A stretch of 64,000 bases of DNA from Nocardioides daejeonensis (GTDB taxonomy: Bacteria > Actinomycetota > Actinomycetes > Propionibacteriales > Nocardioidaceae). Both the position numbers and the translations under genes were made by a program. Under the pieces are notes generated by a model. That model was not told where the DNA came from. It was given only the letters and a program-made list of their open reading frames with translations, and searched no databases. The stretch is from positions 310,001 through 374,000 of the forward strand of contig NZ_QHKZ01000004.1 in assembly GCF_003194585.1 (NCBI RefSeq). The letters run 5' to 3'. Shown here one piece after another: positions 27,994 to 62,254 of the stretch (the first letter of the stretch is position 1; each line of letters starts with the position of its first letter).

Positions 27994-29499
27994 GTGGCAG
28001 GACGACCGACGCGCTTCCGTTCGTGGCGCGCCCGACTCGCGATGAGCGTCGGCATCGTGGTGATCAACCTGCTCGGCACGGTGCTGGTCTACTGCCTGGC
28101 CGCGTGGGTGGTGCCGATCCCCGACGTGGACGACGAGTTCCGGCTCCGCATCGCCAACCTGATCGGGGCGGCGATCTATGTAGGCACCGCCGTGACGGCC
28201 GGCATCGTCTTGCTCAACGTGTCGCTCACGCCGATGGTGCAGTGGATCCGGGCGGGGGCAGACCCCGAGCATCGGGGCCGGCGAACGGTCTTGCGTGCGC
28301 CGCGTCGGATGGCGATCTGGCACGGGTCCGCCTGGACGCTCGCCGCGATCGCTTTCGGTGCGCTGAACGCGACGGTGAGCATCCGGCTCGGCGTCGACGT
28401 GCTGTTGATCGTGGCGCTGGCCGGGTGGTCGACCTCGGCCTTCGCCTACCTGGCCGCGGAGCGGGTGCTGCGCAGCTTCGCCCGGCAAGCGCTGGAGGGG
28501 AACGCCGCCCTGCCCCGGCCGCGGAGCTCGGTCTGGCGGGCGATGTCGAGCTGGGGCCTGGGGTCCGGCGTGGTCCTGCTCGGCTCCGTGCTGGTCGGGC
28601 TCTTCGCCCTCGTCGACGACCAGGACGCCTCGGTCCGGAGCCTGGCGGTCACGATGCTGGTGCTCGGCTGCATCGGCCTCGGGGTCGGGGGGCTGGCCGC
28701 GTTCCTCGGTGCCAAGGCGAGCGCCGACCCGCTGCGCGGTCTGCGTCAGGGAGTGCAGCGGATCGAGAAGGGTGACTACGACGTCACCATCCCGATCTAC
28801 GACGCAACCGAGATCGGGCACCTGCAGGCCGGCTTCAACCGGATGGCTGCCGGTCTGGCCGAGCGCGAGGAGATCCGTGAGCTCTTCGGCCGCCACGTCG
28901 GTGAGGATGTCGCCCGCAACGCACTCGCGCGCGGGGTGTCGCTCGGCGGCGAGAGCAGGCACGTGGCGGTGCTGTTCGTCGACATCATCGGTTCCACCAC
29001 GATCGCGGAGCGGCGCGACCCGACCCAGGTCGTCGACCTGCTCAACCGGTTCTTCGCCGTCGTGATCGATGTGGTCGAGTCACACCACGGCTGGATCAAC
29101 AAGTTCGAGGGCGACGCAGCGCTCGCCGTCTGGGGCGCCCCCGACGAGGTGCCCGGCATGGAGACCCACGCGCTCCGCGCGACCCGCGTGCTTGCCGAAC
29201 GGCTTCGAGCCGAGGTGCCTGAGCTGCGCGCCGGCGTCGGTGTCTCTGCCGGCCGGGCGGTCGCTGGCAACATCGGCGCCGCTCGCCGCTCCGAGTACAC
29301 CGTGATCGGCGATCCGGTGAACGAGGCGGCTCGCCTCACCGACCTGGCCAAGGAGTACCCGGGTCTGGCGCTGGCGCGCTACGACCTGGTCGAGGCCGCC
29401 GACGCCGAGGAGGCCGAGCACTGGCAGGCGGAGCAGCCGGTGCTGCTGCGCGGCCGCAGCGAGCCGACCCCCGTCGCCACTCCCCACCGCGCCGAGTGA
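27994..29499 (+). CDS. Membrane adenylate/guanylate cyclase with HAMP domain
   Basis: This 501-residue class III nucleotide cyclase resembles the mycobacterial Rv1318c-Rv1320c group. Six membrane segments (residues 15-250) lead into a HAMP domain (about 250-305) and the catalytic domain (about 320-480). The metal-binding Asp330 and Asp374 lie in LFVDIIGST and KFEGDAALAVWG. Lys370 is a likely purine-binding residue, and VNEAARL holds the Asn and Arg of the transition state. It is predicted to make cAMP in response to a membrane signal. The GTG start has TACTGT 6 bp upstream. A 22-bp tandem array overlaps its stop codon. Confidence 0.88.
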   Translation: MAGRPTRFRSWRARLAMSVGIVVINLLGTVLVYCLAAWVVPIPDVDDEFRLRIANLIGAAIYVGTAVTAGIVLLNVSLTPMVQWIRAGADPEHRGRRTVLRAPRRMAIWHGSAWTLAAIAFGALNATVSIRLGVDVLLIVALAGWSTSAFAYLAAERVLRSFARQALEGNAALPRPRSSVWRAMSSWGLGSGVVLLGSVLVGLFALVDDQDASVRSLAVTMLVLGCIGLGVGGLAAFLGAKASADPLRGLRQGVQRIEKGDYDVTIPIYDATEIGHLQAGFNRMAAGLAEREEIRELFGRHVGEDVARNALARGVSLGGESRHVAVLFVDIIGSTTIAERRDPTQVVDLLNRFFAVVIDVVESHHGWINKFEGDAALAVWGAPDEVPGMETHALRATRVLAERLRAEVPELRAGVGVSAGRAVAGNIGAARRSEYTVIGDPVNEAARLTDLAKEYPGLALARYDLVEAADAEEAEHWQAEQPVLLRGRSEPTPVATPHRAE

Positions 29500-29537
29500 G
29501 CGCGAATCACGTGTTGAGTGAGCGCGAATGACGCGTC
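29494..29537 (+). repeat. 22-bp-period tandem array, two units, at cyclase 3' end
   Basis: Two units begin at 29494 and 29516, each starting GAGTGAGCGCGAAT and followed by 8 variable bases. The TGA stop of the cyclase gene is inside the first unit. Period and design match arrays at 32855, 53097, 62125 and 62211. Confidence 0.75.
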
Positions 29538-29549
29538 GTAGGTGGGCGA

Positions 29550-29843
29550 TCAGGAGCTTTCGGACTCCGCGATCCGCTCGTGGTGGTGGATCACCTCGGC
29601 GATGACGAAGTTGAGGAACTTCTCCGCGAAGACCGGGTCGAGCCCGGCGTTCTCCGCCAGCGTCCGCAGGCGTGCGACCTGACGCTCCTCGCGAGCCTTG
29701 TCGGCCGGGGGAAGCCCCAGCTCCGCCTTCAGTACGCCGACCTGCTGCGTGCAGCGGAACCGCTCGGCAAGCAGGTGGATCAGGGCAGCGTCGATGTTGT
29801 CGATGCTCTGGCGCAGGCGGAGCAACTCGGGCGGGGTCGTCAC
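29550..29843 (-). CDS. Chorismate mutase (AroQ type)
   Basis: This 97-residue all-helical protein converts chorismate to prephenate, the first step toward phenylalanine and tyrosine. The opening LLRLRQSIDNIDAALIHLLAERF is the typical first helix, with the Arg and Asp used in the active site. EERQVARLRTLAENAGLDPVFAEKFLNFVIAEVIHHH matches the later helices. GTG 29843 is preceded by TAGACT at 8 bp, slightly further than in other leaderless genes here. An upstream GTG at 29876 would add 11 unconserved residues. Prephenate dehydratase, the next enzyme toward phenylalanine, is encoded at 60482-61327. Confidence 0.85.
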   Translation of the reverse strand: MTTPPELLRLRQSIDNIDAALIHLLAERFRCTQQVGVLKAELGLPPADKAREERQVARLRTLAENAGLDPVFAEKFLNFVIAEVIHHHERIAESESS

Positions 29844-29957
29844 GGTGGAGGAGTCTACGGCGGCGCTCCGGCGCACCCGCCGACTTGGTGGTGAGTCGTC
29901 GATTCCCGGAGCCCGTTCGACTGGTTCGTCACACCCGGAGCAGCCGGGAGCGGGCCC

Positions 29958-31481
29958 TCACCAGGGTGAGGGCGCGTAGTCCTTCACGAAGCAGCCGTAG
30001 AGATCCTCGCCCGCCTCACCGCGGACGATCGGGTCGTAGACGCGTGCCGCGCCGTCGACCAGGTCGAGCGGTGCGTGCCAGCCCTCGGCGGCGATGCGCA
30101 GCTTCTCCTGGTGCGGCCGCTCATCGGTGATCCACCCGGTGTCGACGGCTGTCATCAGAATGTTGTCGGTCTCGAACATCTCGCCCGAGGAGGTCCGCGT
30201 CATCATGTTGAGCGCAGCTTTGGCCATGTTGGTGTGCGGGTGGCCCGGCCCCTTGTAGCGACGTGAGAACTGCCCCTCCATCGCAGAGACGTTCACGACG
30301 TAGGCGCGCCGGGCCCCGCGGCGTACGGCCTCGCGCATTGCCGGACGCAGCCGGGAGACGAGCAGGAACGGCGCGATGGAGTTGCAGAACTGCACCTCGA
30401 GCAGCTCCAACGGGTCGACCTCGTCGACGACCTGGGTCCAGGAGTTGTTGGTCTGGGTGTCGGGCAGCAGTCCGCCCGCGTCGACGGCGGTGCCGGCCAA
30501 GTGCGCCTCCAACGAGGCGTGCCCTGCCGTGAGTGCGAGCGCGGTGAGCGAGGCGGCGCTCTGGGCGGCCAGGGCTGCCTCCACCGACTCTCCGTCGTGG
30601 TGGGCGACCGCGTGCTGCTCCAACGCACCGGCGATCGCCGCCGGGTGGGCCTCGCTGATCCGGTCGAAGGTGATCATCTCCGGCAGCTCCAGCCCGGACT
30701 CCAATGGCAGCAGGGGAGCCGACTCCATCTCGACGAGCTGGGAGTAGGCGCCGGGGGAGCGGCGTACGGTCTGGCAGGCGTTGTTGATCAGGATGTCGAG
30801 CGGTCCCTCGGCGGCGACGTCGTCGGCCAGCGAGATCACCTGCGTCGGGTCGCGCAGGTCGATGCCGACGACCTTGAGCCGGTGGAGCCAGTCTCCCGAG
30901 TCCTCGAGGCTGGAGAAGCGGCGTACGGCGTCCTTGGGGAAGCGGGTGGTGATGGTGGTGTGCGCGCCGTCACGGAGCAGGCGGAGGGCGATGTACATGC
31001 CGATCTTGGCGCGGCCGCCGGTGAGCAGCGCGCGTTTGCCGGCGAGGTCGGTGCGCTGGTTGCGCTTCTGGTGCGACATCGCTGCGCACGAGGGGCAGAG
31101 CCAGTGGTAGAACGCGTCGACGAGCGTGAAGTCCTGCTTGCAGATGTAGCAGCCGCGCGCGGTGATCAGCTCGCCGGCGAACGCGCCCTCGGCGGTCGAG
31201 ACCAGCGGGATGCCAGCAGTCTCGTCGTCGATGCGCATCGCCGATCCGGTCGCGGTCTTCTCGATGATCTCCTGATCGTGGCGCTGGCGCTCCAGGCGGA
31301 TCTCGGCGCGGCGCGACTTCTTGATCAGCTTGTACATGTACGACGCCGCGCGCTTCATGGTGCGCACGTCGTCGTGGTCGGGATGCAGCTGCGGGATCTG
31401 CTGGAGCACCTTGATCGCGATCGCCAGCTCGTCGGGGTCGATCCGGTCGAGCTGGGCGTCGGTGGGCTGCGAGTCGGGCAC
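29958..31481 (-). CDS. SDR-fold protein with N-terminal zinc ribbon
   Basis: This 507-residue protein joins a helical N-terminal region (1-85), a Cys4 zinc ribbon (C111-x2-C114 and C129-x2-C132) and a Rossmann domain of the short-chain dehydrogenase type (about 148-500). The nucleotide loop is TGGRAKIG (154-161). NNAC replaces the usual NNAG, and Ser399 is in the usual catalytic place. The expected Tyr-x3-Lys reads Thr417-N-M-A-Lys421, so the catalytic Tyr is absent unless Tyr409 substitutes. An inserted stretch of about 100 residues (250-350) is unusual. Start GTG 31481 has GAGAAT 6 bp upstream. Function unknown. Confidence 0.75.
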   Translation of the reverse strand: MPDSQPTDAQLDRIDPDELAIAIKVLQQIPQLHPDHDDVRTMKRAASYMYKLIKKSRRAEIRLERQRHDQEIIEKTATGSAMRIDDETAGIPLVSTAEGAFAGELITARGCYICKQDFTLVDAFYHWLCPSCAAMSHQKRNQRTDLAGKRALLTGGRAKIGMYIALRLLRDGAHTTITTRFPKDAVRRFSSLEDSGDWLHRLKVVGIDLRDPTQVISLADDVAAEGPLDILINNACQTVRRSPGAYSQLVEMESAPLLPLESGLELPEMITFDRISEAHPAAIAGALEQHAVAHHDGESVEAALAAQSAASLTALALTAGHASLEAHLAGTAVDAGGLLPDTQTNNSWTQVVDEVDPLELLEVQFCNSIAPFLLVSRLRPAMREAVRRGARRAYVVNVSAMEGQFSRRYKGPGHPHTNMAKAALNMMTRTSSGEMFETDNILMTAVDTGWITDERPHQEKLRIAAEGWHAPLDLVDGAARVYDPIVRGEAGEDLYGCFVKDYAPSPW

Positions 31482-31587
31482 CGGGCGATTCTCTCAACCG
31501 AGGCGCCGAGTGCGGAATCGAGGCCGATGCCGACTAGGGCGTCTGCCGGATTGGGGTGCGCTGAGTCGAGCGTGACACCATCCCCGC

Positions 31588-32853
31588 GTGGGTCTGAGGG
31601 ACGCGCTGGCCGACACCACGCCGCTGCGCAACGAGCACTTCGCTCGGCTCTGGCGCGCCAACATCCTCACCGTGATCGGTGCGCAGCTGACGGTGGTTGC
31701 CGTGCCGGCCCAGATCTACGCGATCACCGACTCCTCGGCGTACGTCGGGTTGACCGGCATCTTCGGCCTGGTGCCACTGGTCGTGTTCGGGCTCTGGGGT
31801 GGGGCGCTGGCGGACGCCGTGGATCGCCGCTCCCTCCTGTTGATCACCACGGCCGGGCTGATCGGGACGAGTGCGCTCTTCTGGCTGCAGGCGGCGCTCG
31901 GCAACTCCGACGTATGGCTGCTGCTTGCCCTCTTCGCGGTGCAGCAGGCCTTCTTCGCGGTGAACCAGCCGACCCGCAGCGCGGTGCTGCCCAAGATCCT
32001 GCCGACCGCCCAGCTGCCCGCGGCGAACTCGCTCAACATGACCGTCTTCATGGCGGGAGCGATCGCGGGTCCGATGGTCGGCGGGGCGCTGATCCCGGTG
32101 CTCGGCTTCTCCTGGCTCTACCTGGCCGACACGATCACGCTCTTCGCGACCCTCGGCGCCGTGCTACGCCTGCCGGCGCTTCCGGTCGAGGGGGTCACCC
32201 GTACGCCGGGACTCGCCTCCGTGGTGGACGGCTTCCGCTATCTGCGGATGCACCCGGTGCTGATGGTCTCGTTCGTGGTCGACATCATCGCGATGGTCTT
32301 CGGCATGCCGCGCGCCCTCTTCCCGGAGATGGCGCACGAGTCCTTCGGCGGCGCGACCGAGGGCGGCCTCGCGTTCGCGTTGCTCTTCGCGGCGATCCCT
32401 GCGGGGGCCGTCCTCGGCGGGGTCTTCTCCGGTTGGGTCTCGCGGATCGACCGGCAGGGGCTCGCTGTCGTCGCGGCGATCGTGGCGTGGGGAGTGGCGA
32501 TCGCGGGCTTCGGGCTCGCGGTAGGTCTGGCCGGTGGCACCGTCGGCGTCGCGCTGGCGGCAGCCGTGGTCATGTTGATGGCCGCCGGTGCCGCCGACAT
32601 GGTCTCGGCGGCCTTCCGGCAGAGCATGCTGCAAGGCGCGGCCAGCGACGAGGTGCGCGGGCGGCTGCAAGGCATCTTCATCGTGGTGGTGGCCGGGGGG
32701 CCCCGCATCGCCGACGTGCTGCATGGCGGGGTCGCGTCGCTCACCGGAGCACCCGCCGCTGCCGGCTACGGCGGGGTGCTCGTGGTGGTGCTCGTCCTGG
32801 CGGTCGCGGCGCTGGTGCCCGCGTTCGTCAGGTTCCGGCTCTCCCAACTCTGA
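31588..32853 (+). CDS. MFS exporter (EntS-like)
   Basis: This 421-residue twelve-helix transporter belongs to the EntS/MefA-like branch of the major facilitator superfamily. NEHFARLWRANILTVIGAQLT at the start and GGALADAVDRRSLLL after helix 2 are typical. Members export siderophores or drugs. No siderophore genes are nearby, so the substrate is open. The GTG start has CACCAT 6 bp upstream. A tandem array with 22-bp period begins 1 bp after its stop. It is divergent from the zinc-ribbon SDR gene and convergent with the dienoyl-CoA reductase gene. Confidence 0.82.
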   Translation: MGLRDALADTTPLRNEHFARLWRANILTVIGAQLTVVAVPAQIYAITDSSAYVGLTGIFGLVPLVVFGLWGGALADAVDRRSLLLITTAGLIGTSALFWLQAALGNSDVWLLLALFAVQQAFFAVNQPTRSAVLPKILPTAQLPAANSLNMTVFMAGAIAGPMVGGALIPVLGFSWLYLADTITLFATLGAVLRLPALPVEGVTRTPGLASVVDGFRYLRMHPVLMVSFVVDIIAMVFGMPRALFPEMAHESFGGATEGGLAFALLFAAIPAGAVLGGVFSGWVSRIDRQGLAVVAAIVAWGVAIAGFGLAVGLAGGTVGVALAAAVVMLMAAGAADMVSAAFRQSMLQGAASDEVRGRLQGIFIVVVAGGPRIADVLHGGVASLTGAPAAAGYGGVLVVVLVLAVAALVPAFVRFRLSQL

Positions 32854-32854
32854 C

Positions 32855-32920
32855 GAGACGCCAGCTTCAGCCCGTTGAGACGCCAGCTTCAGTGCGTTGA
32901 GACGCCAGTTTCAGCCGGAT
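32855..32920 (+). repeat. 22-bp-period tandem array, three units, at MFS 3' end
   Basis: Units start at 32855, 32877 and 32899 with GAGACGCCAGCTTCAG (third unit GAGACGCCAGTTTCAG). They are joined by 6-bp linkers ending in GTT in the first two. The array begins 1 bp after the TGA of the exporter gene. The core differs completely from the CGCG-type arrays, but the period is the same. Confidence 0.8.
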
Positions 32921-32944
32921 CGCCGGTGCTGGCCTTCGGGTTCG

Positions 32945-34969: not shown

Positions 34970-35030
34970 CGGGTGGTCTCCGATCGGCGGGGAGTGGGGG
35001 AGGTCGTGACGTCGGGAAGGCGAGGGATCG

Positions 35031-35591
35031 TCATCTCGTCGGGAGGCCCTTGCCGGTTCGCCCGAAGGCGGCGAGGTACTCCGAGAGCCAGCTGACCCAG
35101 TACTCCTCCAGCAGGATCCCGCCGCGGAGCACCAGGTAGTGGTCGAGGTCGGCGCCGGCCAGGGCCGACGGTTCGGGGTAGTCGCGCTCGCACATCCGGA
35201 GGTAGTGGTCGCGCCGGGTCACGTGGTCGGCCAGGTGCGCAGCCACGTCATCGAGCCGGGCCTCGCGGTCGTCGCCCAGCCAAGCGCCGCGCAGCTTCAC
35301 GGCGAGATCGCTGCGCTGCGGGGCCGGTGGGGTGGGCTCGGCGAGCCAGCGCCGCAGCTCCTCGTGGCCGACCGGGGTGACGTCGTACACGAGCTTCGCG
35401 GGGCGCTTGGGTTGGGCGATCTCCTCGCTGGAGAGCCAGCCGTCGGCCTCCATGCGCTTGAGCGTGCGATAGATCTGTTGGTGGCTCGCCTGCCAGAAGA
35501 AGCCGATCGAGGCATCGAACCGGCGGGTGAGCTCGAGCCCGGAGGCGGCACGCTCGGCGAGCGAGACGAGGAGTGCGTGTTCCAGGGCCAT
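35031..35591 (-). CDS. PadR-family regulator
   Basis: This 186-residue repressor has an N-terminal winged helix (about 1-85) opening MALEHALLVSLAERAASGLE, with the recognition region FWQASHQQIYRTLKRMEADGW. The C-terminal helical domain ends with LEEYWVSWLSEYLAAF and is typical of Vir/PadR_C proteins that respond to aromatic or lipid ligands. CAGGCT on the minus strand (35598-35603) lies 6 bp before the ATG, so it is probably leaderless. A 14-bp palindrome at 35613-35626 covers its -35 region. It is followed by the dienoyl-CoA reductase-like gene. Confidence 0.85.
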   Translation of the reverse strand: MALEHALLVSLAERAASGLELTRRFDASIGFFWQASHQQIYRTLKRMEADGWLSSEEIAQPKRPAKLVYDVTPVGHEELRRWLAEPTPPAPQRSDLAVKLRGAWLGDDREARLDDVAAHLADHVTRRDHYLRMCERDYPEPSALAGADLDHYLVLRGGILLEEYWVSWLSEYLAAFGRTGKGLPTR

Positions 35592-35612
35592 GGGGCCAGC
35601 CTGACCTACCTA

Positions 35613-35626
35613 TGCAACTAGTTGCA
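35613..35626. promoter_or_regulatory. Perfect palindrome TGCAACTAGTTGCA, PadR operator candidate
   Basis: This AT-rich 14-bp perfect palindrome lies 10-23 bp upstream of the PadR -10 hexamer, over the -35 region. The position suits autorepression of PadR and repression of the reductase gene behind it. It is 78 bp from the -10 of the divergent CoA-transferase gene, so control of that gene is less certain. Confidence 0.65.
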
Positions 35627-35716
35627 ATGGGTGGTGAGCGGCATCACGTCTCGCCGGTCGAGCGAAATCGGGAGCGTGCTGTCGACGCTGACAGCGGCTC
35701 TGTCATGATGCGCAGC

Positions 35717-36874: not shown

Positions 36875-36875
36875 T

Positions 36876-37769: not shown

Positions 37770-37771
37770 GC

Positions 37772-38698: not shown

Positions 38699-38708
38699 GC
38701 CGAGCCGG

Positions 38709-40108: not shown

Positions 40109-40112
40109 GCAT

Positions 40113-50808: not shown

Positions 50809-53094
50809 GTGAGCGATCACCCCACCACCGGACCTGTCATCGGTCGCACCACGGCCGAGTCGACGCCGTACCACCCGCCGCGGGAGCGGCCCGCAGGCAA
50901 GCCGAACGTGCTGGTGGTGTTGCTCGACGACGTCGGCTTCGGCCAGCTCGGACCGTTCGGCGGCGAGATCGAGACGCCCAACATCGACCGGTTGGCAGGA
51001 GCTGGGCTGCGTTACAACAGGTTCCACGTCACGGCGATGTGTTCGCCCACGCGCGCCGCGCTGCTCACCGGGCGCAACTCGCACTCGGTGGGAGTCGGCT
51101 TCCTGGCGGATATGCCCAGTGGCTATCCCGGTTACAGCGGGCGGATCCCGGCCTCGGCAGCCACGGTGCCGCGCATCCTGCGCGACGCCGGGTGGAACAC
51201 GATGGCGCTCGGCAAGTGGCACCTCACGCCACGTAACGACCGCACCGCCGCTGGCCCCTTCGAGACCTGGCCGCTGGGCCAAGGATTCGAACGTTGGTAT
51301 GGCTTCCTCCACGGCGACGCCAACCAATGGACGCCGACGCTCTATCGCGACAACTCGCCGGTGGAGCCGCCAGCCACCCCCGAGCAGGGCTACCACCTGA
51401 CCGAGGACCTGGTCGACGAGGCGCTGCGCATGATCAAGGACCAGAAGCACGCGGCGCCGGAGAAGCCCTTCTTCTGCTACTTCGCTCCCGGCGTCGGCCA
51501 CGCGCCGCATCAGGCGCCGCGCGAGTGGATCGAGAAATACGCGGGTCGCTTCGACGACGGCTGGGAGGCGTTGCGCGAACGCACCTTCGCGCGTCAGATC
51601 GCACGGGGCGTCGTACCCGAGGGAACTACGTTGCCGCCCCGACCCGACTGGGTGCAGGCGTGGAAGGAGTTGAGCGGGGAGGAGCAGCGCCTCTTCGCGC
51701 GGTACGCCGAAGCCCATGCGGGCTTCATCTCTCACTTCGATCACCACCTCGGCAGGTTGTTGGACGGTCTGGAAGAGCTCGGAATCGACGACAACACGAT
51801 GGTGCTCTTCACCTCCGACAATGGGGCGAGTGCCGAGGGCGGGCGGCTCGGTTCGCTCAACGAGCACCGCTTCGGGTTCGGGGTCGGCGACAACCTCGAC
51901 GACAATCTGGCCGCGATCGACGACATCGGCGGTTGGCGTGGCTACAACCACTACCCGTGGGGCTGGGCGTGGGCCGGCAACACCCCCTTCCACCTGTGGA
52001 AGCGCTACTCCTGGCTCGGCGGGGTGCGGGTGCCGATGATCCTCAAACCGGCCGGCGGGGCCGCGGACCGTGGGGCGGTGCGCGACCAGTGGTGCCACGT
52101 GGTCGACGTGGCCGCGACGGTCCTCGACGCGTGCGGTGTCGCGGCGCCCGACCAGGTGGGCGGAGTCGCTCAGCAGGCGATGGCCGGCGCCTCGCTGCTG
52201 CCTAGCGTCGCTGACCCGGCTGCCCCGGCGCCGCGAACCACGCAGTATTTCGAGATGCTCGGCTCGCGGTCGATCATCCATGACCGCTGGAAGGCGACCA
52301 CCGACCACATCTCGGGCGGTGTCGATGACGAGACGATGCTCCCCGGCAGTCGCGACTTCGCCGAGGACCGTTGGGCGCTCTTCGACATGGAGGCCGACTT
52401 CTCCGAGGCGCATGACCTCGCCGCCGATCATCCCGAGGTCGTCGCCGACCTCGAAGCCCGCTGGGAGGCCGAAGCCCACGCGCACCAGGTCTTCCCGATG
52501 ACCGACAGTCTCTATGGGCATCTGCTCGGTTTCGAGCCGCCGCTGTGGCCGATCCCGGACCGGTTGGTCGTCCGACCGGGCGGCAATCCCGTGGTCGACG
52601 AGGCCGTCCCTTCGCTCGCCATGGGTGCGTTGCTGGAGGCCGAGGTGACCGTCTCCGAGGCGGGCGCCGAGGGCGTACTCGCCGCGATCGGTGATTGGTC
52701 GAACGGGTGGGCGCTCACCGTCATCGACGGCTGCCCGCGTTTTCTGCTCAACGTCACCAGCACGCCGTACGCCGTCACGTCACCGACGCCGCTGTCGCCC
52801 GGCCGGCACGTGGTGGGCTTCCGGTTCGCGGGCGGCGAGGGGATCCTGCTCGTCGATGGCGCGGAGGTGGCGCGGGCGCCGTTGGCCCAAGGCATGGGTG
52901 CCAGCGGCATCCAGATCGGTGGTGGCGGACTGCGGGTCGGCCACGACGCGGGCTTCCCGGTCTCCGACGCCTACGCCCCGCCGTTCGCCTGGAACGGCGA
53001 GCTCCGCAGCGTGACGTTCACCGGAGGGCAGGCGCTCGTCGACCTCGATGCCGCTCGTGCCGAGCAGCTGGCGGCCGCCGTCCGCGCCGAGTAG
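50809..53094 (+). CDS. Cytosolic arylsulfatase
   Basis: This 761-residue enzyme hydrolyses sulfate esters. The sulfatase signature C78-S-P-T-R82 (in TAMCSPTRAALLTGR) supplies the formylglycine residue made from Cys. Metal ligands start at Asp40-Asp41 in VVLLDDVGFG, and later blocks are LGKWHL and FTSDNG. The C-terminal 200 residues form a beta-rich domain. There is no signal peptide, so the enzyme should act in the cytoplasm, unlike many bacterial sulfatases. GTG 50809 has AGGAG 7 bp upstream. The adjacent MarR and BASS genes suggest a sulfated organic anion as substrate. A 22-bp tandem array follows its stop. Confidence 0.9.
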   Translation: MSDHPTTGPVIGRTTAESTPYHPPRERPAGKPNVLVVLLDDVGFGQLGPFGGEIETPNIDRLAGAGLRYNRFHVTAMCSPTRAALLTGRNSHSVGVGFLADMPSGYPGYSGRIPASAATVPRILRDAGWNTMALGKWHLTPRNDRTAAGPFETWPLGQGFERWYGFLHGDANQWTPTLYRDNSPVEPPATPEQGYHLTEDLVDEALRMIKDQKHAAPEKPFFCYFAPGVGHAPHQAPREWIEKYAGRFDDGWEALRERTFARQIARGVVPEGTTLPPRPDWVQAWKELSGEEQRLFARYAEAHAGFISHFDHHLGRLLDGLEELGIDDNTMVLFTSDNGASAEGGRLGSLNEHRFGFGVGDNLDDNLAAIDDIGGWRGYNHYPWGWAWAGNTPFHLWKRYSWLGGVRVPMILKPAGGAADRGAVRDQWCHVVDVAATVLDACGVAAPDQVGGVAQQAMAGASLLPSVADPAAPAPRTTQYFEMLGSRSIIHDRWKATTDHISGGVDDETMLPGSRDFAEDRWALFDMEADFSEAHDLAADHPEVVADLEARWEAEAHAHQVFPMTDSLYGHLLGFEPPLWPIPDRLVVRPGGNPVVDEAVPSLAMGALLEAEVTVSEAGAEGVLAAIGDWSNGWALTVIDGCPRFLLNVTSTPYAVTSPTPLSPGRHVVGFRFAGGEGILLVDGAEVARAPLAQGMGASGIQIGGGGLRVGHDAGFPVSDAYAPPFAWNGELRSVTFTGGQALVDLDAARAEQLAAAVRAE

Positions 53095-53096
53095 CC

Positions 53097-53162
53097 GTCG
53101 AGTTCGCGCATATGGCGTGTCGAGTTCGCGCGAAGGGTCCGTTGAGTTCGCGCGAATGGTCG
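53097..53162 (+). repeat. 22-bp-period tandem array, three units, after sulfatase gene
   Basis: Units start at 53097, 53119 and 53141 with GTCGAGTTCGCGC, GTCGAGTTCGCGCGAA and GTTGAGTTCGCGCGAA. The core TTCGCGCGAA is itself a palindrome. The array begins 2 bp after the sulfatase TAG. An additional TTTGCGCGAA occurs downstream near 53196. Confidence 0.82.
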
Positions 53163-53263
53163 AGGGATCAACATTCAAGCAAAGTGAAGGTGTTGTTTGC
53201 GCGAAGTCGGCAGGAGAGGGGAGAAGGTAGGGAACCGGCTCGGCCCAGCGGACATGACCGGGT

Positions 53264-53851: not shown

Positions 53852-53855
53852 ACAG

Positions 53856-54752: not shown

Positions 54753-54813
54753 GCGCCCGGGGGCGGTCGGCATCGGGTGCATCACACCCGTAGACCAATT
54801 GAATCTTGTTCAG

Positions 54814-54819
54814 TAGTCT
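54814..54819 (+). promoter_or_regulatory. -10 hexamer TAGTCT of leaderless EthA-like gene
   Basis: TAGTCT lies 7 bp before ATG 54827, with no ribosome site between. The AT-rich stretch just upstream (CAATTGAATCTTGTTCAG) holds a weak inverted repeat, TGAA/TTCA, that might bind a repressor. Confidence 0.55.
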
Positions 54820-54826
54820 CGTCGGC

Positions 54827-56284: not shown

Positions 56285-56325
56285 GTCTGGCTGCGGCCCG
56301 CGTCGGCCAAGCCTTCTTCTGCGGC

Positions 56326-56370
56326 GGTGTTGTCGATCCTCCGTGTCACAGCACGGGGGGCGACAACACC
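56326..56370. terminator. Hairpin GGTGTTGTCG/CGACAACACC after ethA-like gene
   Basis: A perfect 10-bp stem (56326-56335 with 56361-56370) encloses an inner CCGTG/CACGG hairpin. It lies 41 bp after the monooxygenase stop and may be its terminator. The arm sequence GGTGTTGTCG also begins the dispersed repeat found at 3007, 23319 and 59247, so the hairpin may derive from two opposed copies. Confidence 0.55.
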
Positions 56371-56440
56371 CCGCGTCGCAGCTCGCCGGTGGTGGGCGAC
56401 CTCACAGCGGGCCGATGCGTGCTCCGGCGGACGCGTGCCC

Positions 56441-56579
56441 TACCCTTGAAGGGCTCGGTCCGACCAGTCTTGCCGCGGACCGAATGGCGCGCTCCAGGGC
56501 GCGATCCCTCGAATCCGAGGCACTTCCGCACACCACGTGCGATGAGTTGGGTGAGACACCACCAACGAAGAGATTTTTC
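56441..56579 (+). promoter_or_regulatory. Probable promoter and structured leader of DEAD-box gene
   Basis: TACCCT (56441-56446) is a possible -10 hexamer. If so, the mRNA has a leader of about 125 bases. The leader holds a stem TCGGTCC (56455-56461) with GGACCGA (56477-56483) and a small hairpin CCTCG/CGAGG (56507-56520). Structured leaders are common in genes for cold-shock RNA helicases. The rest of the 295-bp gap before the gene shows no other coding signal. Confidence 0.4.
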
Positions 56580-58052
56580 TTGTCTGACCAGACGTTCGCC
56601 GAGTTCGGCGTGCCCACTGTCCTGTCCACGGTGCTCGCCGAGCGCGGCATCACCCACCCCACCCCGATCCAGGCAGCGACCCTGCCCGACTCGCTGGCCG
56701 GCCGCGACGTGCTCGGCCGTGGCCGCACCGGATCGGGCAAGACCTACGGCTTCCTCCTTCCCGTCGTCGCCCGCCTCGTCGCCAGCGGCCGCAAGGCCCG
56801 CTCCGGCGCCCCCCGGGCGCTGATCCTCGCGCCGACCCGCGAGCTGGTCGGCCAGATCGAGGAGTCCCTGGCCCCGCTGGCGGCGGCCAGCGGGTTGAGC
56901 ACGCGCACCGTCTTCGGCGGCGTCGGCCAGAACCCGCAGGTGCAGGCGCTGCGGAAGGGCGTCGACATCGTGATCGCCTGCCCCGGTCGCCTCGAGGACC
57001 TCATCAACCAGGGTCACTGCAGCCTGCGTGACGTCGAGATCACCGTGCTCGACGAGGCCGACCACATGGCCGACCTCGGCTTCCTGCCCGGCGTGCGCCG
57101 CCTGATGGACCAGACCCCGAAGGACGGCCAGCGGCTGCTCTTCTCGGCGACCCTCGACAAGGCGATCGACGTGCTGGTGAAGCGCTTCCTGGTCGACCCC
57201 GTCACCCACGAGGCCGACTCCGCCCAGTCGCCGGTCGCCACCATGACCCACCACGTGCTGCACCTGCAGCGCGACCACCGTCTCCCGGTGCTCGTCGACC
57301 TCACCTCCGCGCCCGGGCGCACCGTGGTCTTCACGCGCACCAAGTACGGCGCCAAGGGGCTGGCCCGCCAGCTCAACCGCAACGGGGTTCCGGCCGTCGA
57401 GCTGCACGGCAACCTCAGCCAGAACGCGCGCACCCGCAACATGGACGCCTTCCACTCCGGTGAGGCCACCACCCTGGTCGCCACCGACATCGCGGCCCGC
57501 GGCATCCACGTGGACGACGTCGCACTCGTCGTGCACGCCGACCCGCCCGCCGAGCACAAGGCCTACCTGCACCGCTCGGGCCGCACCGCCCGCGCCGGTG
57601 CCGAGGGCGCCGTCATCACGTTGATGACCGACGACCAGGTCAAGGACGTCCGGGACCTGACTCGCGCCGCTGGCATCAAGCCGAAGATCACCCGCATCGA
57701 CGGCGCCACCCACCCGGTGTTGAAGGAGCTCGCCCCCGGCGAGCGCAACGCTCCCGGCGCGATCGTCTTCGAGCAGTCTGCCCAGCCGGCCGCCAAAGCG
57801 GGTGGCGGTCAGGCCAAGTCCGGCGGTCGCCGTCGCCGTCGCTCCGGTGGCGGCTCGGGCTCCCAGCCGGCCGGGCGTCAGGGCCAGTCCTCCCGCTCCG
57901 GCGCTCCTGCCCAGGGCTCGCGTGGCGGCGGCCAGTCGACCGGGCAGGCCCGCAAGCAGGGCTCCACTGGCGGTGGCAGCCGCAAGCCTTCGGGCCGTCG
58001 TACGTCGGGTGGGCGCGGGCACAGCGCAGCGTCCTTCAGTTCCGGCCGCTGA
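56580..58052 (+). CDS. DEAD-box RNA helicase
   Basis: This 490-residue ATP-dependent RNA helicase unwinds RNA during ribosome assembly or mRNA turnover. It has the Q motif (GITHPTPIQ), motif I GRTGSGKT, PTREL, motif II DEAD in VLDEADHMADLG, SAT in LLFSATL, and HRSGRTARAG. From about residue 405 the tail is low-complexity, rich in Arg, Gly, Ser and Gln, and probably binds RNA. I start at TTG 56580, because homology begins at SDQTFAEFGVP and the region before it is not protein-like. The ribosome site (GAAGAG) is weak, so expression may depend on the structured leader. Confidence 0.88.
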   Translation: MSDQTFAEFGVPTVLSTVLAERGITHPTPIQAATLPDSLAGRDVLGRGRTGSGKTYGFLLPVVARLVASGRKARSGAPRALILAPTRELVGQIEESLAPLAAASGLSTRTVFGGVGQNPQVQALRKGVDIVIACPGRLEDLINQGHCSLRDVEITVLDEADHMADLGFLPGVRRLMDQTPKDGQRLLFSATLDKAIDVLVKRFLVDPVTHEADSAQSPVATMTHHVLHLQRDHRLPVLVDLTSAPGRTVVFTRTKYGAKGLARQLNRNGVPAVELHGNLSQNARTRNMDAFHSGEATTLVATDIAARGIHVDDVALVVHADPPAEHKAYLHRSGRTARAGAEGAVITLMTDDQVKDVRDLTRAAGIKPKITRIDGATHPVLKELAPGERNAPGAIVFEQSAQPAAKAGGGQAKSGGRRRRRSGGGSGSQPAGRQGQSSRSGAPAQGSRGGGQSTGQARKQGSTGGGSRKPSGRRTSGGRGHSAASFSSGR

Positions 58053-58066
58053 CCTTGTGCAGTGCG

Positions 58067-58105
58067 AAGGCCCCGGGGCAACCTCAGGTTGCCCCGGGGC
58101 CTTCG
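58067..58105. terminator. Terminator hairpin with 18-bp perfect stem
   Basis: GAAGGCCCCGGGGCAACC and its exact complement flank a TCA loop, 14 bp after the helicase stop. It lies between convergent genes and can act in both directions. Confidence 0.88.
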
Positions 58106-58123
58106 TCATGGCCACGCGCGGGT

Positions 58124-58525
58124 CTACGCGACGAGTAGCCCGATGCCCAGGCTGAGCAGGCCGGCCGCCAGCACGACCGCACCGACGCCGACGAGCGCGA
58201 TGAAGCCGTTGGGCTCGGTCCGACCTCGTCCCATCGATGCGAAGAAGAATCCGCCGGGCATGAGCAAGGCGGCGACCGGAACGCCCGCGCGGGCGAGCCA
58301 GTCGAGGACGCCGGTCTGGGTGGTCGCATCGGCGAGCAGCTGACAGACCAGGCCCAGGATGAGAAGCACGCCGGCATGTGCGTGGCCCGCGCGGGCGAAC
58401 CTCTCCTGGAACGGTGTGGACGGGACCTTCGCGCGCGCGATCGCCATCAGGTAGGCGCCGCCGCTCTCGACGGTGACCAGCGACAGCAGCAGGACGCCGG
58501 CAAGGATGCGGGATTCGTCGGACAC
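58124..58525 (-). CDS. Small four-helix membrane protein
   Basis: This 133-residue protein is almost all hydrophobic, with four helices (about 7-28, 42-65, 72-92 and 105-130). ARAGHAHAGVLLILGLVCQLL is the most distinctive stretch. I do not recognise a function. GTG 58525 has GAAGGGGG 4 bp upstream. It is divergent from the MerR gene across 71 bp that hold a MerR-like operator. Control by that regulator is likely. Confidence 0.7.
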   Translation of the reverse strand: MSDESRILAGVLLLSLVTVESGGAYLMAIARAKVPSTPFQERFARAGHAHAGVLLILGLVCQLLADATTQTGVLDWLARAGVPVAALLMPGGFFFASMGRGRTEPNGFIALVGVGAVVLAAGLLSLGIGLLVA

Positions 58526-58550
58526 GAGACCCCCTTCATTAGATATCTGA

Positions 58551-58569
58551 CTATCCAATAGTTGGGTAG
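58551..58569. promoter_or_regulatory. MerR-type operator candidate CTATCCAATAGTTGGGTAG
   Basis: The arms CTATCCAA and TTGGGTAG match at 7 of 8 positions around a 3-bp centre. Another half-site, CTATCCAAT, follows at 58574-58582. The site is AT-rich and centred in the divergent spacer between the membrane protein and the MerR gene. Confidence 0.6.
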
Positions 58570-58596
58570 TGAGCTATCCAATGTCAAGATGTGGTG

Positions 58597-59232
58597 GTGT
58601 GGATCTCTGAGCTCTCCGAACGCAGTGGCGTACCCGTGCCGACCGTGAAGTACTACCTGCGTGAGGGGCTGCTCCCGCCGGGGAGGGCGACCGGTGCGAC
58701 GCGCGCTGTCTACGACGATCGCCATGTGCAGCGGCTCCGACTCATCCGTGCGCTCGTCGAGGTCGCGGGGATGGGAGGTGAGCGCATCCGTGCGGTGATT
58801 GCTGCGGTCGACGACCAGCGGGCCGACCTGCACGACGTACTCGCCAGTGCGCACGAGGAGCTCTCTCCGGTGCCCGAGCGCGAGCCGTCGGCGGAGGCGC
58901 GGGAGGCCGTCGCCCGCCTGATCGACCTACGTGGATGGCAGGTGACGCCGAGGGGGCGGCACGCGGAGGCGCTCGCGGCTGCGCTCGACGCTCTGCATGG
59001 GGCCGGTCAGGCACTGAGCGAGGATGCGCTCGTTGCCTATGCGGACGCGGTCGCCGGCGTCGCCGCCTTGGAGATCGGCTCGATGTCGGAGGCGAGCAGG
59101 GAGGATGCCGCGACGTACGCCGTGATCGGGACCCTGCTCGTCGAGCCGGTGCTGGTCACCTTGCGGCGGTTGGCGCACGAGGACCTGTCGTCGCGCCGCT
59201 TCTCGCGGAGCGAGCAAGCACAGCAGCGTTGA
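58597..59232 (+). CDS. MerR-family regulator
   Basis: This 211-residue regulator has an N-terminal MerR helix-turn-helix (ISELSERSGVPVPTVKYYLREGLLPPG) and wing (VQRLRLIRALVEVAGMGGER). A longer helical C-terminal domain for sensing follows. No metal-binding Cys are seen, so an organic ligand is likely. I start at the third of three consecutive GTG codons (58597), because CAAGAT lies 6 bp before it. It is divergent from the small membrane protein gene. Its stop is followed by the dispersed 50-bp repeat. Confidence 0.83.
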   Translation: MWISELSERSGVPVPTVKYYLREGLLPPGRATGATRAVYDDRHVQRLRLIRALVEVAGMGGERIRAVIAAVDDQRADLHDVLASAHEELSPVPEREPSAEAREAVARLIDLRGWQVTPRGRHAEALAAALDALHGAGQALSEDALVAYADAVAGVAALEIGSMSEASREDAATYAVIGTLLVEPVLVTLRRLAHEDLSSRRFSRSEQAQQR

Positions 59233-59246
59233 CGGGGATCGACGGC

Positions 59247-59297
59247 ACTGGTGCGGTGTTGCTGTCGGAAAGTCGACGTCGTAGCGCTGGTGCAGCG
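59247..59297 (+). repeat. Dispersed ~50-bp repeat, plus orientation
   Basis: The stretch begins ACTGGTGCGGTGTTGCTGTC, continues GGAAAGTCGACGTCGTAGCG and ends CTGGTGCAGCG. It aligns with the minus strand of 23319-23367 and partly with 3007-3036. It lies between two convergent genes. Confidence 0.6.
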
Positions 59298-59311
59298 AGC
59301 GGGACCCCGCG

Positions 59312-60409
59312 TTACAGCTGCGGGCGCGCCGAGATCTTGCGCGTGATCGTGCAGCCGTCGACGGTGAGCTGCACGCGTCCCTTGCGGAGCCGGTCCTTCA
59401 GCAGGCGCACCCGGAGCTTCGTCGTCCGCTTGCCGGTGGCGGTCGAGGCGTCGATCCACCAGCCGGCGTCGGGGTGGAAGCGGCCGAGCGCGAGGGTGCG
59501 GGCCGGGCGACCGCAGCCCCGGGGCAGGGAAACCTCCAGGCGGCGTACGACACCTCGGGCGTTGACCCGGAAGCTCACCTGCTTGCCGCTCCAGCGACCC
59601 TTGCGAGGACGCTGCCCGGCAGCTCGCACGACGACCGGGGTCGACGCCGTCAGGGTCACCGGCACCCCGGTAGGTCCAGCGCCGGTCAGGGTGGAGGTGA
59701 GGCTCCGCCGGCGGTTTCCGGCGCGTGCGGTGACCGGGACCATGACCGTCGCGCTCGCCCCAGCCGTCAGGTCGGGGAGCTCGACCGCCGGAGCCTTGAG
59801 GCCGGGGCCGGAGGGCTGGAGGGTAGCGCCCGTGAGCGGGCCGCCACCGGTGTTGGTGACGGTGAGGGGGAGCCGCGTGGTCTGGCTGCGGTAGAGCGGA
59901 CCCGCAGTGGTGGTGATGCGCGCCACGGGGCCAGGAGCCGAGACCGGTTGGAGGTTCAGCAGCTCAGAGTCCCAGAAGCCGACGTCCTCGTTCGCCTTGA
60001 CGGTGACGACCACGCAGTCATGGCGCTCGACGCTCTGGCCCCTGTAGTCGAAGGTCAGGATCCGTCCGGATCGAGTGGCGATGGCGTTGGGGGTGAAGGT
60101 CCGCGTGCTGCGTTCCTCCCTGTGGATGCACGAGCCTGGGCCGCGCCGACCCCAGATCACGGTGATGATCGCGTCCGTGGCTGCGGTGGGTGCCGCCCCG
60201 AGGGTCACCGTCACCTGGCGGCGTCGCGACATGATGTCGGATCGTGCCGTGAGGCGATGGACGTCCTGGGCTGCCGGGAAGAGGTCGGGCTGCTGCCGGG
60301 TGTCGCCGGACCCCCGGGTCGCCACCACGACGTCGCCTTCGGCGGCGACCGCCGGTGGCAGGACGGCCACCAGGGCAAGGGTGATCACGGCTCCGAGTAC
60401 GACGCGCAT
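59312..60409 (-). CDS. Secreted multi-domain beta protein of unknown function
   Basis: This 365-residue protein has a signal peptide (about 1-24, cleaved after AVAA). It appears to hold an N-terminal domain with two Cys (about 25-165) and an Ig-like domain typical of CARDB/DUF11 repeats (about 170-265; TRLPLTVTNTGGGPLTGATL). The C-terminal basic beta domain has two Cys (about 275-365). It is presumably extracellular or surface-bound and could be adhesive or structural. I know no close named family. ATG 60409 has CAGCCT on the minus strand 7 bp upstream, so it is probably leaderless. Confidence 0.65.
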   Translation of the reverse strand: MRVVLGAVITLALVAVLPPAVAAEGDVVVATRGSGDTRQQPDLFPAAQDVHRLTARSDIMSRRRQVTVTLGAAPTAATDAIITVIWGRRGPGSCIHREERSTRTFTPNAIATRSGRILTFDYRGQSVERHDCVVVTVKANEDVGFWDSELLNLQPVSAPGPVARITTTAGPLYRSQTTRLPLTVTNTGGGPLTGATLQPSGPGLKAPAVELPDLTAGASATVMVPVTARAGNRRRSLTSTLTGAGPTGVPVTLTASTPVVVRAAGQRPRKGRWSGKQVSFRVNARGVVRRLEVSLPRGCGRPARTLALGRFHPDAGWWIDASTATGKRTTKLRVRLLKDRLRKGRVQLTVDGCTITRKISARPQL

Positions 60410-60481
60410 GTGCGCGAGGCTGCCCGCCCGACCTGCCGGCAAAACCTCGGTGCTCGAACCCGCTGGGTGCTTGCGTGCGCG

Positions 60482-61327
60482 TCAGGCAGTCTCGGCGCGG
60501 AACGGGTGGGCCGGGTAGACGCCGAGCACGCGGATCTCGGTGGTGAAGAACTCCAGCTCCTCCAGGGCACGGGCGAGTGCCGGCTCTTCCGGGTGCCCCT
60601 CCACGTCGGCGAGGAAGACGGTTGCGGTGAACTCGCCGTTGACCATGTAGGACTCGAGCTTGGTCATGTTGACGCCGTTGGTCGCGAAGCCGCCCAGCGC
60701 CTTGTAGAGCGCAGCCGGCAGGTTGCGCACCTGGAAGACGAAAGTCGTCACGGTCAGACCGTTGTGGGGCGGAGGAATCTGCGGCTGGCGGGCGAGAAGG
60801 ACGAAACGGGTCGTGTTGTGCTGCTCGTCCTCGACATCGGCCGCCAGCGTCTGAAGGCCGTAGATCTCGCCCGCCAGTGCGGTGGCCAGCGACGCCCGCG
60901 TCGGGTCGGCTGCCTCGGCGATCTCCCGGGCCGAGCCGGCGGTGTCGCCGGCGGTGATCGGCGTCAGGCCGAGCTGGTGGATGATCCGTCGGCATTGGCC
61001 GAGCGCGTGCACGTGGCTGTGCACGGTGCGCAGGGTCTCGGTGGTCGCGCCGGGCACGGCGAGGAGCTGGAAGTGGATCGGCATGAAGTGCTCGCCGATG
61101 ATGTGCAGCCCCGAGGTCGGCAGGAAGTGGTGGATGTCGGCGACTCGGCCGGCGAGCGAGTTGTCGATCGGAATCATCGCCAGATCCGCGGTGCCGTCCT
61201 GGACCGCACCGAGCGCGTCCTCGAAGGAGGCGCACGGCAACGGCTCGAGGTCCGGACGGACCTCACGGCAGGCGATGTCGGAGTTGGCCCCCGGCTCGCC
61301 CTGGTAGGCGATCTTCCCTGTGCTCAC
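60482..61327 (-). CDS. pheA: Prephenate dehydratase
   Basis: This 281-residue enzyme converts prephenate to phenylpyruvate in phenylalanine synthesis. The catalytic domain (1-180) opens KIAYQGEPGANSDIAC and holds the essential TRF in NTTRFVLLA. An ACT domain (about 190-275) binds phenylalanine for feedback control. In that domain the usual ESRP reads ESYM (MTKLESYMVNGEFTATVFLA), a form I associate with alphaproteobacterial enzymes more than with mycobacterial ones. GTG 61327 has GAGCAT on the minus strand 6 bp upstream. Chorismate mutase is encoded about 31 kb away. Confidence 0.9.
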   Translation of the reverse strand: MSTGKIAYQGEPGANSDIACREVRPDLEPLPCASFEDALGAVQDGTADLAMIPIDNSLAGRVADIHHFLPTSGLHIIGEHFMPIHFQLLAVPGATTETLRTVHSHVHALGQCRRIIHQLGLTPITAGDTAGSAREIAEAADPTRASLATALAGEIYGLQTLAADVEDEQHNTTRFVLLARQPQIPPPHNGLTVTTFVFQVRNLPAALYKALGGFATNGVNMTKLESYMVNGEFTATVFLADVEGHPEEPALARALEELEFFTTEIRVLGVYPAHPFRAETA

Positions 61328-61466
61328 CAGCCCATGCTCCCAGCAATGGGAACGGGCGTCTCATCAGGGGAGATCCTGAGTACCCTCGGCGGGGGCGCGC
61401 TGAGTCGCCCGCGAGGCTCGATCGCCCGGCTTGGGCAGGTCTCGTCGTACGACCGTGAGGCCCGAC

Positions 61467-62150
61467 ATGTCCTTCCCTGCGCCCGTCACCGTCCACGCCG
61501 GCTCCGAGGATCCGCAGGCGCCCCTGGTGGTGCTCTTCCACGGCATCGGCGAGGACGAGTCGATGTTCGCTCCCGCCGTACCGCACCTGCCCGCGACAGC
61601 GGGCCTCGTCCTCATGCGCGGCCCGATCGCGACCGGACGCGGCTACAACTGGTTCGAACGCCGTGACGGACGGATCCACCCACCCTCGCTCGTGCGGGTG
61701 ATGGATTGGTTCGAGGCGTGGATCGACGAGACCGCAGCGGGTCGTCCGGTCGTCGTCGTAGGGTTCAGCGCCGGCTCCGCCTTCGCCGGGAGCCTGGTGC
61801 TCCGCAGCCCTGGCCGGTACGCCGGAGCAGCGGTCCTCTCGGGGGCGATCCCGGTGGAGAGCCTGGGCGGTGAGGTCGGTCTTGCTGGCCGACTGAGCGG
61901 CCTGCCGGTCTTCCTGGCCGTCAGCGAGCAGGACGCGATCATCCGCGAGGAGTACACCCGCGAGACCTGGCACTACCTCGTCGAGGAGTCCGGCGCAGAG
62001 GTCACCACCCGCCGTGACCCGGGCATCCACGAGGTCACCGAGGCGACCGCCGTGGAGCTCGGCCGGTGGCTCGAGCGGGTGTGCGCCGGGTTGGGAACCG
62101 GAACGACGACCGCCCGCAGGCAGGGCGAGTGCGCGCAAACAACACGTTGA
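61467..62150 (+). CDS. Phospholipase/carboxylesterase-type alpha/beta hydrolase
   Basis: This 227-residue hydrolase belongs to the phospholipase/carboxylesterase (abhydrolase_2) family. The nucleophile Ser is in VVGFSAGSAFAG, the Asp in VSEQDAII and the His in DPGIHEVTEATA. VVLFHGIGEDESMF is the oxyanion region. It has no signal peptide and should be a cytosolic esterase or thioesterase. The last eleven or so codons, including the stop TGA, are formed by the first units of a 22-bp tandem array, so the C-terminal tail (GECAQTTR) is repeat-derived. ATG 61467 has GTGAGG 6 bp upstream. Confidence 0.8.
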   Translation: MSFPAPVTVHAGSEDPQAPLVVLFHGIGEDESMFAPAVPHLPATAGLVLMRGPIATGRGYNWFERRDGRIHPPSLVRVMDWFEAWIDETAAGRPVVVVGFSAGSAFAGSLVLRSPGRYAGAAVLSGAIPVESLGGEVGLAGRLSGLPVFLAVSEQDAIIREEYTRETWHYLVEESGAEVTTRRDPGIHEVTEATAVELGRWLERVCAGLGTGTTTARRQGECAQTTR

Positions 62151-62190
62151 GTGCGCGCAAGTGAAGCCTTGAGTGCGCGCAAATGGTCGC
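62125..62190 (+). repeat. 22-bp-period tandem array, three units, at esterase 3' end
   Basis: Units start at 62125, 62147 and 62169, with the shared core GAGTGCGCGCAA. The first lies inside the esterase coding sequence. The TTGAG of the second supplies the esterase stop codon. Confidence 0.82.
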
Positions 62191-62210
62191 TTCGTCGTAC
62201 TCGCCTCGTC

Positions 62211-62254
62211 ATCTGCGCGAAGTGAACGCCGTATTTGCGCGAACTCGACGCCGA
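62211..62254 (-). repeat. 22-bp-period tandem array, two units, at merR 3' end
   Basis: Two units at 62211 and 62233 read ATCTGCGCGAA and ATTTGCGCGAA on the plus strand. On the minus strand the second contains GTCGAGTTCGCGCAAAT, like the array at 53097. It starts 7 bp after the stop of the MerR gene and points the same way as that gene. Confidence 0.75.

What the first reader, a model, noticed from the sequence alone, without database searches (positions are those of the whole stretch)
29494..62254. Tandem arrays with exactly 22-bp period at five gene 3' ends
Five arrays of 2-3 units (29494-29537, 32855-32920, 53097-53162, 62125-62190, and 62211-62254 on the minus strand) share one period, 22 bp, although their cores differ (GAGTGAGCGCGAAT, GAGACGCCAGCTTCAG, GAGTTCGCGCGAA, GAGTGCGCGCAA). 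Each touches or follows a stop codon within 7 bp, and the one behind the minus-strand gene is inverted to match it. Conserved period without conserved core argues against simple slippage of one ancestor. 22 bp is about two helical turns, so units could present sites on one DNA face. It is also one more than a multiple of 3, so three TTGAG units put TGA in all three frames, a possible stop cassette. I know of no description of this family.
Basis: seen in the sequence. Interest (0 to 1): 0.75.

Follow-up and report, generated by a model that had tools for sequence, protein, structure and literature searches.

The report
Evenly spaced repeats behind gene ends
A Nocardioides-type bacterium marks many of its gene ends with short tandem DNA repeats spaced at exactly 22 bases whose core sequence differs from species to species, a layout that looks like rows of docking sites for an unknown protein and may stand in for ordinary transcription stop signals.

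Summary
The five arrays are real and belong to a genome-wide family. GTTGAG pairs occur 63 times at period 22, against 31 over 30 other spacings. Two core classes exist, both starting GTYGAG. In 788 kb read, neighbouring units differ at 20.6% of bases, yet 167 of 169 spacings are 22. At array-free gene ends single units are no commoner than chance. Arrays lie behind stop codons, mostly parallel to the gene, at convergent or otherwise spacious gene ends.

Arrays with other cores occur in other Nocardioides, Umezawaea, Amycolatopsis, Gordonia, Sinomonas and more. The nearest relative held has two such classes with a step of 21. Cores, and mostly sites, differ between species.

On average array bodies have no RNA structure. 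Facing arrays of one class can form strong hairpins, but partners are no more alike than unrelated arrays of the class. The stop-cassette idea fails a frame test. No RAYT-type transposase was found.

Best reading: iteron-like tandem sites read by an unknown protein, acting as 3'-end boundary or terminator elements. Protein and termination are inferred. An array between menE and menC speaks against a strong terminator. Nearest known kind: REP/BIME-type repeats.

The parts
29491..29534 (+). class A array, 2 units of 22 bp; stop codon of gene 28042-29499 inside unit 1
32852..32917 (+). class B array, 3 units; overlaps the TGA of gene 31588-32853 by 2 nt
53097..53162 (+). class A array, 3 units, 2 nt behind the TAG of gene 50809-53094
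53190..53211 (-). single class A unit in opposite orientation behind the array at 53097
62124..62189 (+). class A array, 3 units; the stop of gene 61467-62150 is the TGA of unit 2
62206..62249 (-). class A array, 2 units (the second degenerate), 12 nt from the stop of minus-strand gene 62262-63011; inverted partner of 62124-62189

Best explanation
The arrays are rows of protein-binding sites, built like iterons: 2-14 direct copies of a site that starts GTYGAG, one per two turns of the DNA helix (22 bp here, 21 bp in the nearest relative). They sit directly behind stop codons, mostly at ends of transcription units. The most likely action is that a sequence-specific protein binds several neighbouring sites at once and forms a polar boundary at the 3' end, stopping or weakening transcription where a stem-loop terminator would otherwise stand; two facing arrays of one class serve a convergent gene pair. 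Each lineage has its own core, so binder and sites would change together. Shown: the family, its spacing constraint, its position and orientation, its turnover, and the lack of RNA structure in most array bodies. Inferred: the protein, cooperative binding and the termination effect.
For: Spacing: 756 substitutions between neighbours (20.6%) but 167 of 169 spacings of 22 (one 21, one 47). In G248 the step is 21 in 11 of 12 unit pairs, over two different classes. Six other genomes show 22, but their loci were mostly picked by a period-22 pattern. Site-like columns: 95-100% fixed (A: 4, 5, 10, 11, 13; B: 1, 4, 5, 9-12, 15, 17), others near half (units were found with the same model, which favours the consensus). 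Single units at 346 array-free 3' ends: 2 above threshold, 4 in the reversed control. Position. Convergent gaps: 9 of 103 hold arrays on both strands, 4 on one; independence at that rate would give about one. In 21 other actinobacterial genomes 48 of 54 arrays stand parallel behind a gene, 41 of 54 within 30 nt of the stop. Array bodies: mean z -0.39, 4 of 42 below -2. Inverted partners share class in 18 of 19 pairs but are no more alike than unrelated arrays of the class (10.8 against 10.7 of 16; inner and outer units likewise): recognition of a consensus rather than pair-by-pair base pairing. Solo arrays: 3 of 16 regions with z below -2, against 57 of 104 array-free convergent ends (Fisher p 0.014). 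At three own array sites the nearest relative shows a stem-loop by eye.
Against: No binding protein was found, and no co-occurrence search was made. Against array-free codirectional ends (50 of 151 with z below -2) the lack of structure at solo arrays is not clearly different. Five units separate menE from menC, which overlap in G248; a strong terminator there would silence menC unless it has its own promoter. Of 41 arrays of two or more units outside genes, 9 are not parallel behind the nearest upstream gene (some perhaps by missed small genes). 31 of 47 parallel arrays have an inverted unit within 250 nt and could act as RNA hairpins. Shared sites between the two species are few and were not shown to exceed background. 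A genome can hold tandem gene-end arrays with quite different steps: G204 22 and 32, G248 also 18, 19 and 31.
Confidence: 0.42

Rival explanations
1. Dispersed repeats of the REP/BIME or MIRU sort: a mobile or recombination-spread family, tolerated at gene ends, with no role in gene expression. Each lineage has its own burst, and position reflects where insertion does least harm.
For: None of the 19 GTYGAG pairs of G248 has a class B core, though a loose class B unit pattern still hits there (31 per Mb against 94 in the own genome). Its second class (GCGAACCTTCA) does not occur in 713 kb of the own genome. Of 29 own array-bearing ends compared, a clear G248 array was seen at 3. menE carries two arrays that G248 lacks, one in frame inside the gene.
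Against: No Y1 transposase (PF01797) in this genome or 24 relatives. No two-unit block is shared by two arrays (0 of 158), so no sign of recent copying of whole arrays. Column-specific conservation and few indels. Single units not above chance at gene ends. By inspection, convergent arrays start nearer to their own stop than they end to the facing one in nearly all cases.
Confidence: 0.27
2. RNA stem-loop terminators with multiplied arms: facing arrays pair in the transcript and stop transcription both ways; solo arrays are leftovers.
For: 31 of 47 parallel arrays have an inverted unit within 250 nt; 26 of these 31 regions have z below -2, mean -6.1. 18 of 19 pairs share class. In Gordonia asplenii, Metallococcus carri and a Microbacteriaceae bin the last unit runs into a hairpin, by eye.
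Against: 16 of 47 have no partner, and 13 of these 16 no marked structure. Partner units are no more complementary than unrelated ones. A hairpin does not need a fixed step.
Confidence: 0.22
3. Plain replication slippage of chance duplications.
For: Tandem copies, copy number 2-14.
Against: One period and two cores over dozens of loci, unit steps kept at 20% divergence, adjacent units no more alike than non-adjacent ones (17.5 against 18.1 of 22).
Confidence: 0.02
4. Stop cassette: TGA in all three frames behind the gene.
For: 22 is one more than a multiple of 3 and GTTGAG holds TGA; in 5 own arrays the TGA of unit 1 is the stop codon.
Against: First units have C at position 3 in 55 of 62 and so lack TGA there; T does not depend on frame.
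Confidence: 0.02

Closest known systems
REP/BIME elements of enterobacteria and Stenotrophomonas
   Same: Many short intergenic copies, part of them close to stop codons, in facing pairs, sequence differing by species, hybrid clusters of two classes; linked to termination and protein binding (PMC2817692: start of abstract and passages; PMC12306157: start of abstract and passages).
   Different: Here the unit is not a palindrome, copies within an array are direct and 22 (or 21) bp apart, and no RAYT transposase was found.
Iterons of plasmid origins (recalled, no call)
   Same: Direct repeats of about 17-22 bp, one per two helical turns, bound by a protein.
   Different: These lie at many chromosomal gene ends, not at an origin; no binding protein known.
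Mycobacterial interspersed repetitive units (recalled; one search found no text)
   Same: Tandem intergenic units in gene orientation touching stop codons; the menE-menC case resembles their site.
   Different: Units there are longer and lie inside operons; here mostly at convergent or spacious ends.
TAACTGA direct repeats of Beggiatoaceae (PMC4679880: abstract and passages)
   Same: Many sets of short direct repeats at a fixed place next to genes, patchy over taxa.
   Different: Heptamers without spacing, mostly before start codons.

Membership tests
REP/BIME with RAYT | unit is an imperfect palindrome | tested here: not met
   self-complementary pairs A 3.91 against 4.20 shuffled; B 4.58 against 4.28 (sd 0.08), a slight excess; array bodies mean z -0.39, 4 of 42 below -2
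REP/BIME with RAYT | cognate Y1 tyrosine transposase (PF01797) in the genome | tested here: not met
   0 of 25 genomes including the own; 5 of 14 control genomes ring
REP/BIME with RAYT | many intergenic copies at 3' ends, alternating orientation | tested here: met
   direct within an array, facing between arrays
Iteron-type protein-binding array | direct repeats at a constant helical step | tested here: met
   167 of 169 spacings 22; 21 in 11 of 12 in G248
Iteron-type protein-binding array | a cognate binding protein | not testable with these tools
   no binding data; no co-occurrence search was made
Intrinsic terminator | stable hairpin in the transcript | tested here: inconclusive
   26 of 31 paired arrays yes, 3 of 16 solo arrays
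Rfam families | match at gathering score | tested here: not met
   0 matches in the window

The most novel reading that the evidence does not exclude
A hairpin-free, protein-read gene-end signal in Actinomycetota: iteron-like arrays whose helical step is kept by the genome (22 bp for both classes here, 21 bp for both measured classes of the nearest relative) while the code in the core is rewritten from lineage to lineage together with an unknown, fast-evolving DNA-binding protein.
Probability: 0.3. Interest if true: 0.85.

Novelty: new variant of a known kind. Interest (0 to 1): 0.62.

Why it matters
If the arrays are bound and stop transcription, some actinomycetes end genes by DNA-bound proteins instead of, or besides, RNA hairpins and Rho, and terminator prediction misses them. 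Even if they are only repeats, they are an abundant 3'-end family whose spacing is under constraint while its sequence is not, spread by something other than the REP transposase tested here.

Tried and rejected
Stop cassette: frame test negative. Slippage alone: rejected on spacing and period. REP/RAYT membership: rejected. Base pairing of facing arrays as the thing selected: no excess likeness over unrelated arrays. Known RNA family: none in the window. Phage or plasmid source: no match for one array in the phage set and one array pair in the plasmid set. Step of 22 as two turns of A-form RNA: weakened by 21 in G248 and 32 in G204. Conserved sites between species: a clear array in G248 at 3 of 29 own array-bearing ends; not tested against background. 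A first count of codirectional gaps, 10 of 166 ends with 60 bp or more and 0 of 276 with less, favours long gaps because the array itself lengthens the gap; one search takes the array length out. Genome-wide number: 42 arrays lie in C13 plus window, but C13 holds at least 58 of the 163 GTYGAG pairs of the genome in the capped list and is rich in arrays; I put the total at roughly 110 by extrapolation. Phylum sample: 4 of 396 genomes with a three-unit GTYGAG array, the own included, the other three with one match each. Literature: the listings (some capped) showed no title that describes these arrays; the library holds only open-licence papers.

Limits: genes were called by a crude script of my own. 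The 62 arrays include 20 from 12 stretches chosen because they hold arrays. Hits in AT-rich groups were not examined. In some genomes the reversed control also gives many matches (GAGTTG lies inside units that start GTTGAGTTG), so it is no clean control there. G248 is nearest by one locus only and is listed with 7% contamination; its ends were read over about 190 nt, hairpins and arrays judged by eye.
Full report
WHAT IS THERE. The window lies in a 4.40 Mb genome of the genus Nocardioides; the name is inferred: handle G204, of the same genus, has a contig of 5,367,947 bases, the length of the Nocardioides sp. SLBN-35 record. The five arrays are as described. They are part of a family. Over the own genome GTTGAG-N16-GTTGAG has 63 matches and the reversed control 0. 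With a free gap of 2-32 bases there are 94 matches, 63 at period 22 and 31 over the 30 other spacings; its reversed control gives 15. With Y at position 3 there are 163 matches, control 2. A search blind to sequence in C13 (649 kb) and the window finds 36 and 5 intergenic tandem pairs at period 22 and 0-5 at each other period from 19 to 40.

THE UNIT. Two classes have nearly equal numbers in C13 plus window: A, GTYGAGTKCGCGCRAATGRCGC, 89 hits, and B, GTYGAGACGCCASYTTCAGCAC, 85 hits, a few of them single hits inside genes; the reversed C13 gives 11 hits against 160. One array mixes both in register (AABB, C13:417502-417589). Some columns are fixed, others free. The first unit differs: position 3 is C in 55 of 62 arrays, against 32% in middle and 27% in last units. 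Of the 7 first units with T, 5 are those whose TGA is the stop codon itself. At 346 array-free 3' ends 2 score above threshold, 4 in the reversed control. Arrays have 2 to 14 units, median 3.

SPACING IS CONSTRAINED. At the middle threshold 167 of 169 spacings up to 70 bp are 22 (one 21, one 47), although neighbours differ at 756 positions, 20.6%. Neutral change with so many substitutions should leave tens of indels (my estimate from recalled bacterial indel rates). Homogenisation does not explain it: adjacent units are no more alike than non-adjacent ones (17.5 and 18.1 of 22). In six other genomes the unit step is 22 apart from multiples of it and one 43, in loci mostly picked by a period-22 pattern; in G248 it is 21 in 11 of 12 pairs, over two unrelated classes.

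POSITION. In C13 plus the window parallel arrays stand at 21 of 206 convergent 3' ends. Of 103 convergent gaps 9 hold arrays on both strands and 4 on one. Of 103 divergent gaps 1 holds an array. Codirectional gaps with the array length taken out: 11 of 162 of 60 bp or more, 2 of 48 of 30-59 bp, 2 of 232 shorter. Of 41 arrays of two or more units outside genes 32 are parallel behind the upstream gene; one array of two or more lies wholly inside a gene. In the wider set of 62 arrays the neighbours are convergent in 34, both parallel in 15, both opposite in 11 and divergent in 2. Of 47 with an upstream stop in reach 23 start 1-5 nt behind it. In 54 arrays of 21 other actinobacterial genomes, 48 are parallel behind a gene, median 7 nt from the stop, 41 within 30 nt, none inside a gene; 13 of 48 use the TGA of the first GTTGAG as the stop.

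RNA STRUCTURE. Array bodies fold on average no better than dinucleotide shuffles (mean z -0.39, 4 of 42 below -2). Of 47 parallel arrays 31 have an inverted unit within 250 nt, and 26 of these 31 regions have z below -2; of the 16 without a partner 3 do. Array-free ends: 57 of 104 convergent, 50 of 151 codirectional. Facing arrays can thus make strong hairpins, most solo arrays do not. Facing partners share class in 18 of 19 cases without being more alike than unrelated arrays of that class, at inner units (9.7 against 9.8 of 16) or outer ones (10.9 against 10.8). I read this as selection for a class consensus rather than for pairing.

RELATIVES. Of 245 genomes of the family 73 have at least one match to GTTGAG-N16-GTTGAG and 25, the own included, five or more by my count of the table. 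Cores differ by genome. Named holders are several Nocardioides, Mumia, Umezawaea beigongshangensis, Amycolatopsis pithecellobii, Gordonia, Sinomonas, Metallococcus carri and others. In the phylum sample 4 of 396 have a three-unit GTYGAG array. The nearest relative held, G248 (81% at one locus), was compared end by end. At window 29491 it has an array with a related core. At C12:88 kb it has facing arrays of 21-bp GCGAACCTTCA units where the own genome has facing class B arrays, and behind the gene of C13:466131-466174 it has 21-bp units of the same class. At the 62124 pair, at C13:417.5 kb and at one further end it shows a stem-loop by eye. At the other ends I saw no clear array. At window 8759 G248 has an array and the own genome 10 bp. 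Its second class does not occur in 713 kb of the own genome.

MENE. In the own genome five class B units lie at the 3' end of menE, supply its stop and part it from menC, and four more lie in frame inside menE in reverse orientation, in a linker after VAFV. menC passes its NCBIfam cut-off; the menE protein's best family is o-succinylbenzoate--CoA ligase at 325.6 bits, below the cut-off of 345, the match ending near the inserted units. G248, G166 and G228 have neither array in the DNA shown, nor do the menE proteins of G221, G160 and G241 have the insert. In G248 menE and menC overlap, by my reading. So arrays do arise at new sites, and one sits inside an operon.

READING. Fixed spacing with drifting sequence, fixed and free columns, lack of single sites, and class sharing without pair complementarity are what tandem sites for a cooperative DNA-binding protein would show. 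Position at transcription-unit ends and exchange with stem-loops point to a boundary or terminator role. The protein is unknown. The main rivals are a REP-like dispersed repeat without function and hairpins with multiplied arms. REP/RAYT membership fails on palindrome and transposase. No listed title described such arrays.

Noticed in passing
C13:643637-643724 (locus L177): Four class B units inside menE, in frame and in reverse orientation, in a variable linker; absent in G248.
   Followed up: yes
L288:11822-12091 (G204): Facing tandem arrays with a 32-bp step sharing GACCCGGC but with different remainders on the two sides, meeting in a long hairpin (by eye).
   Followed up: partly
L302:18200-18361 (G166): Facing 22-bp arrays without GTYGAG (CGCGAACGGGCA core), one right behind a TGA: the same layout with another start motif.
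   Followed up: partly
L303:5251-5369 (G166): About nine copies of a 13-bp unit in an intergenic gap.
   Followed up: no
L057, L115, L100 (Gordonia asplenii, Metallococcus carri, Microbacteriaceae bin): The last unit of the array runs into a hairpin such as GGTTGAGCGAGC...TCGAAACC.
   Followed up: no
G000:C12, about 281790-282120 (locus L181): Fourteen-unit class A array in which units ending AAATCTCAC and AAGTCCCAC are interspersed.
   Followed up: no
L282:9309-9546 (G248): 31-bp tandem array built of GGTCTCGACAAGCTCGACC-type hairpins.
   Followed up: no
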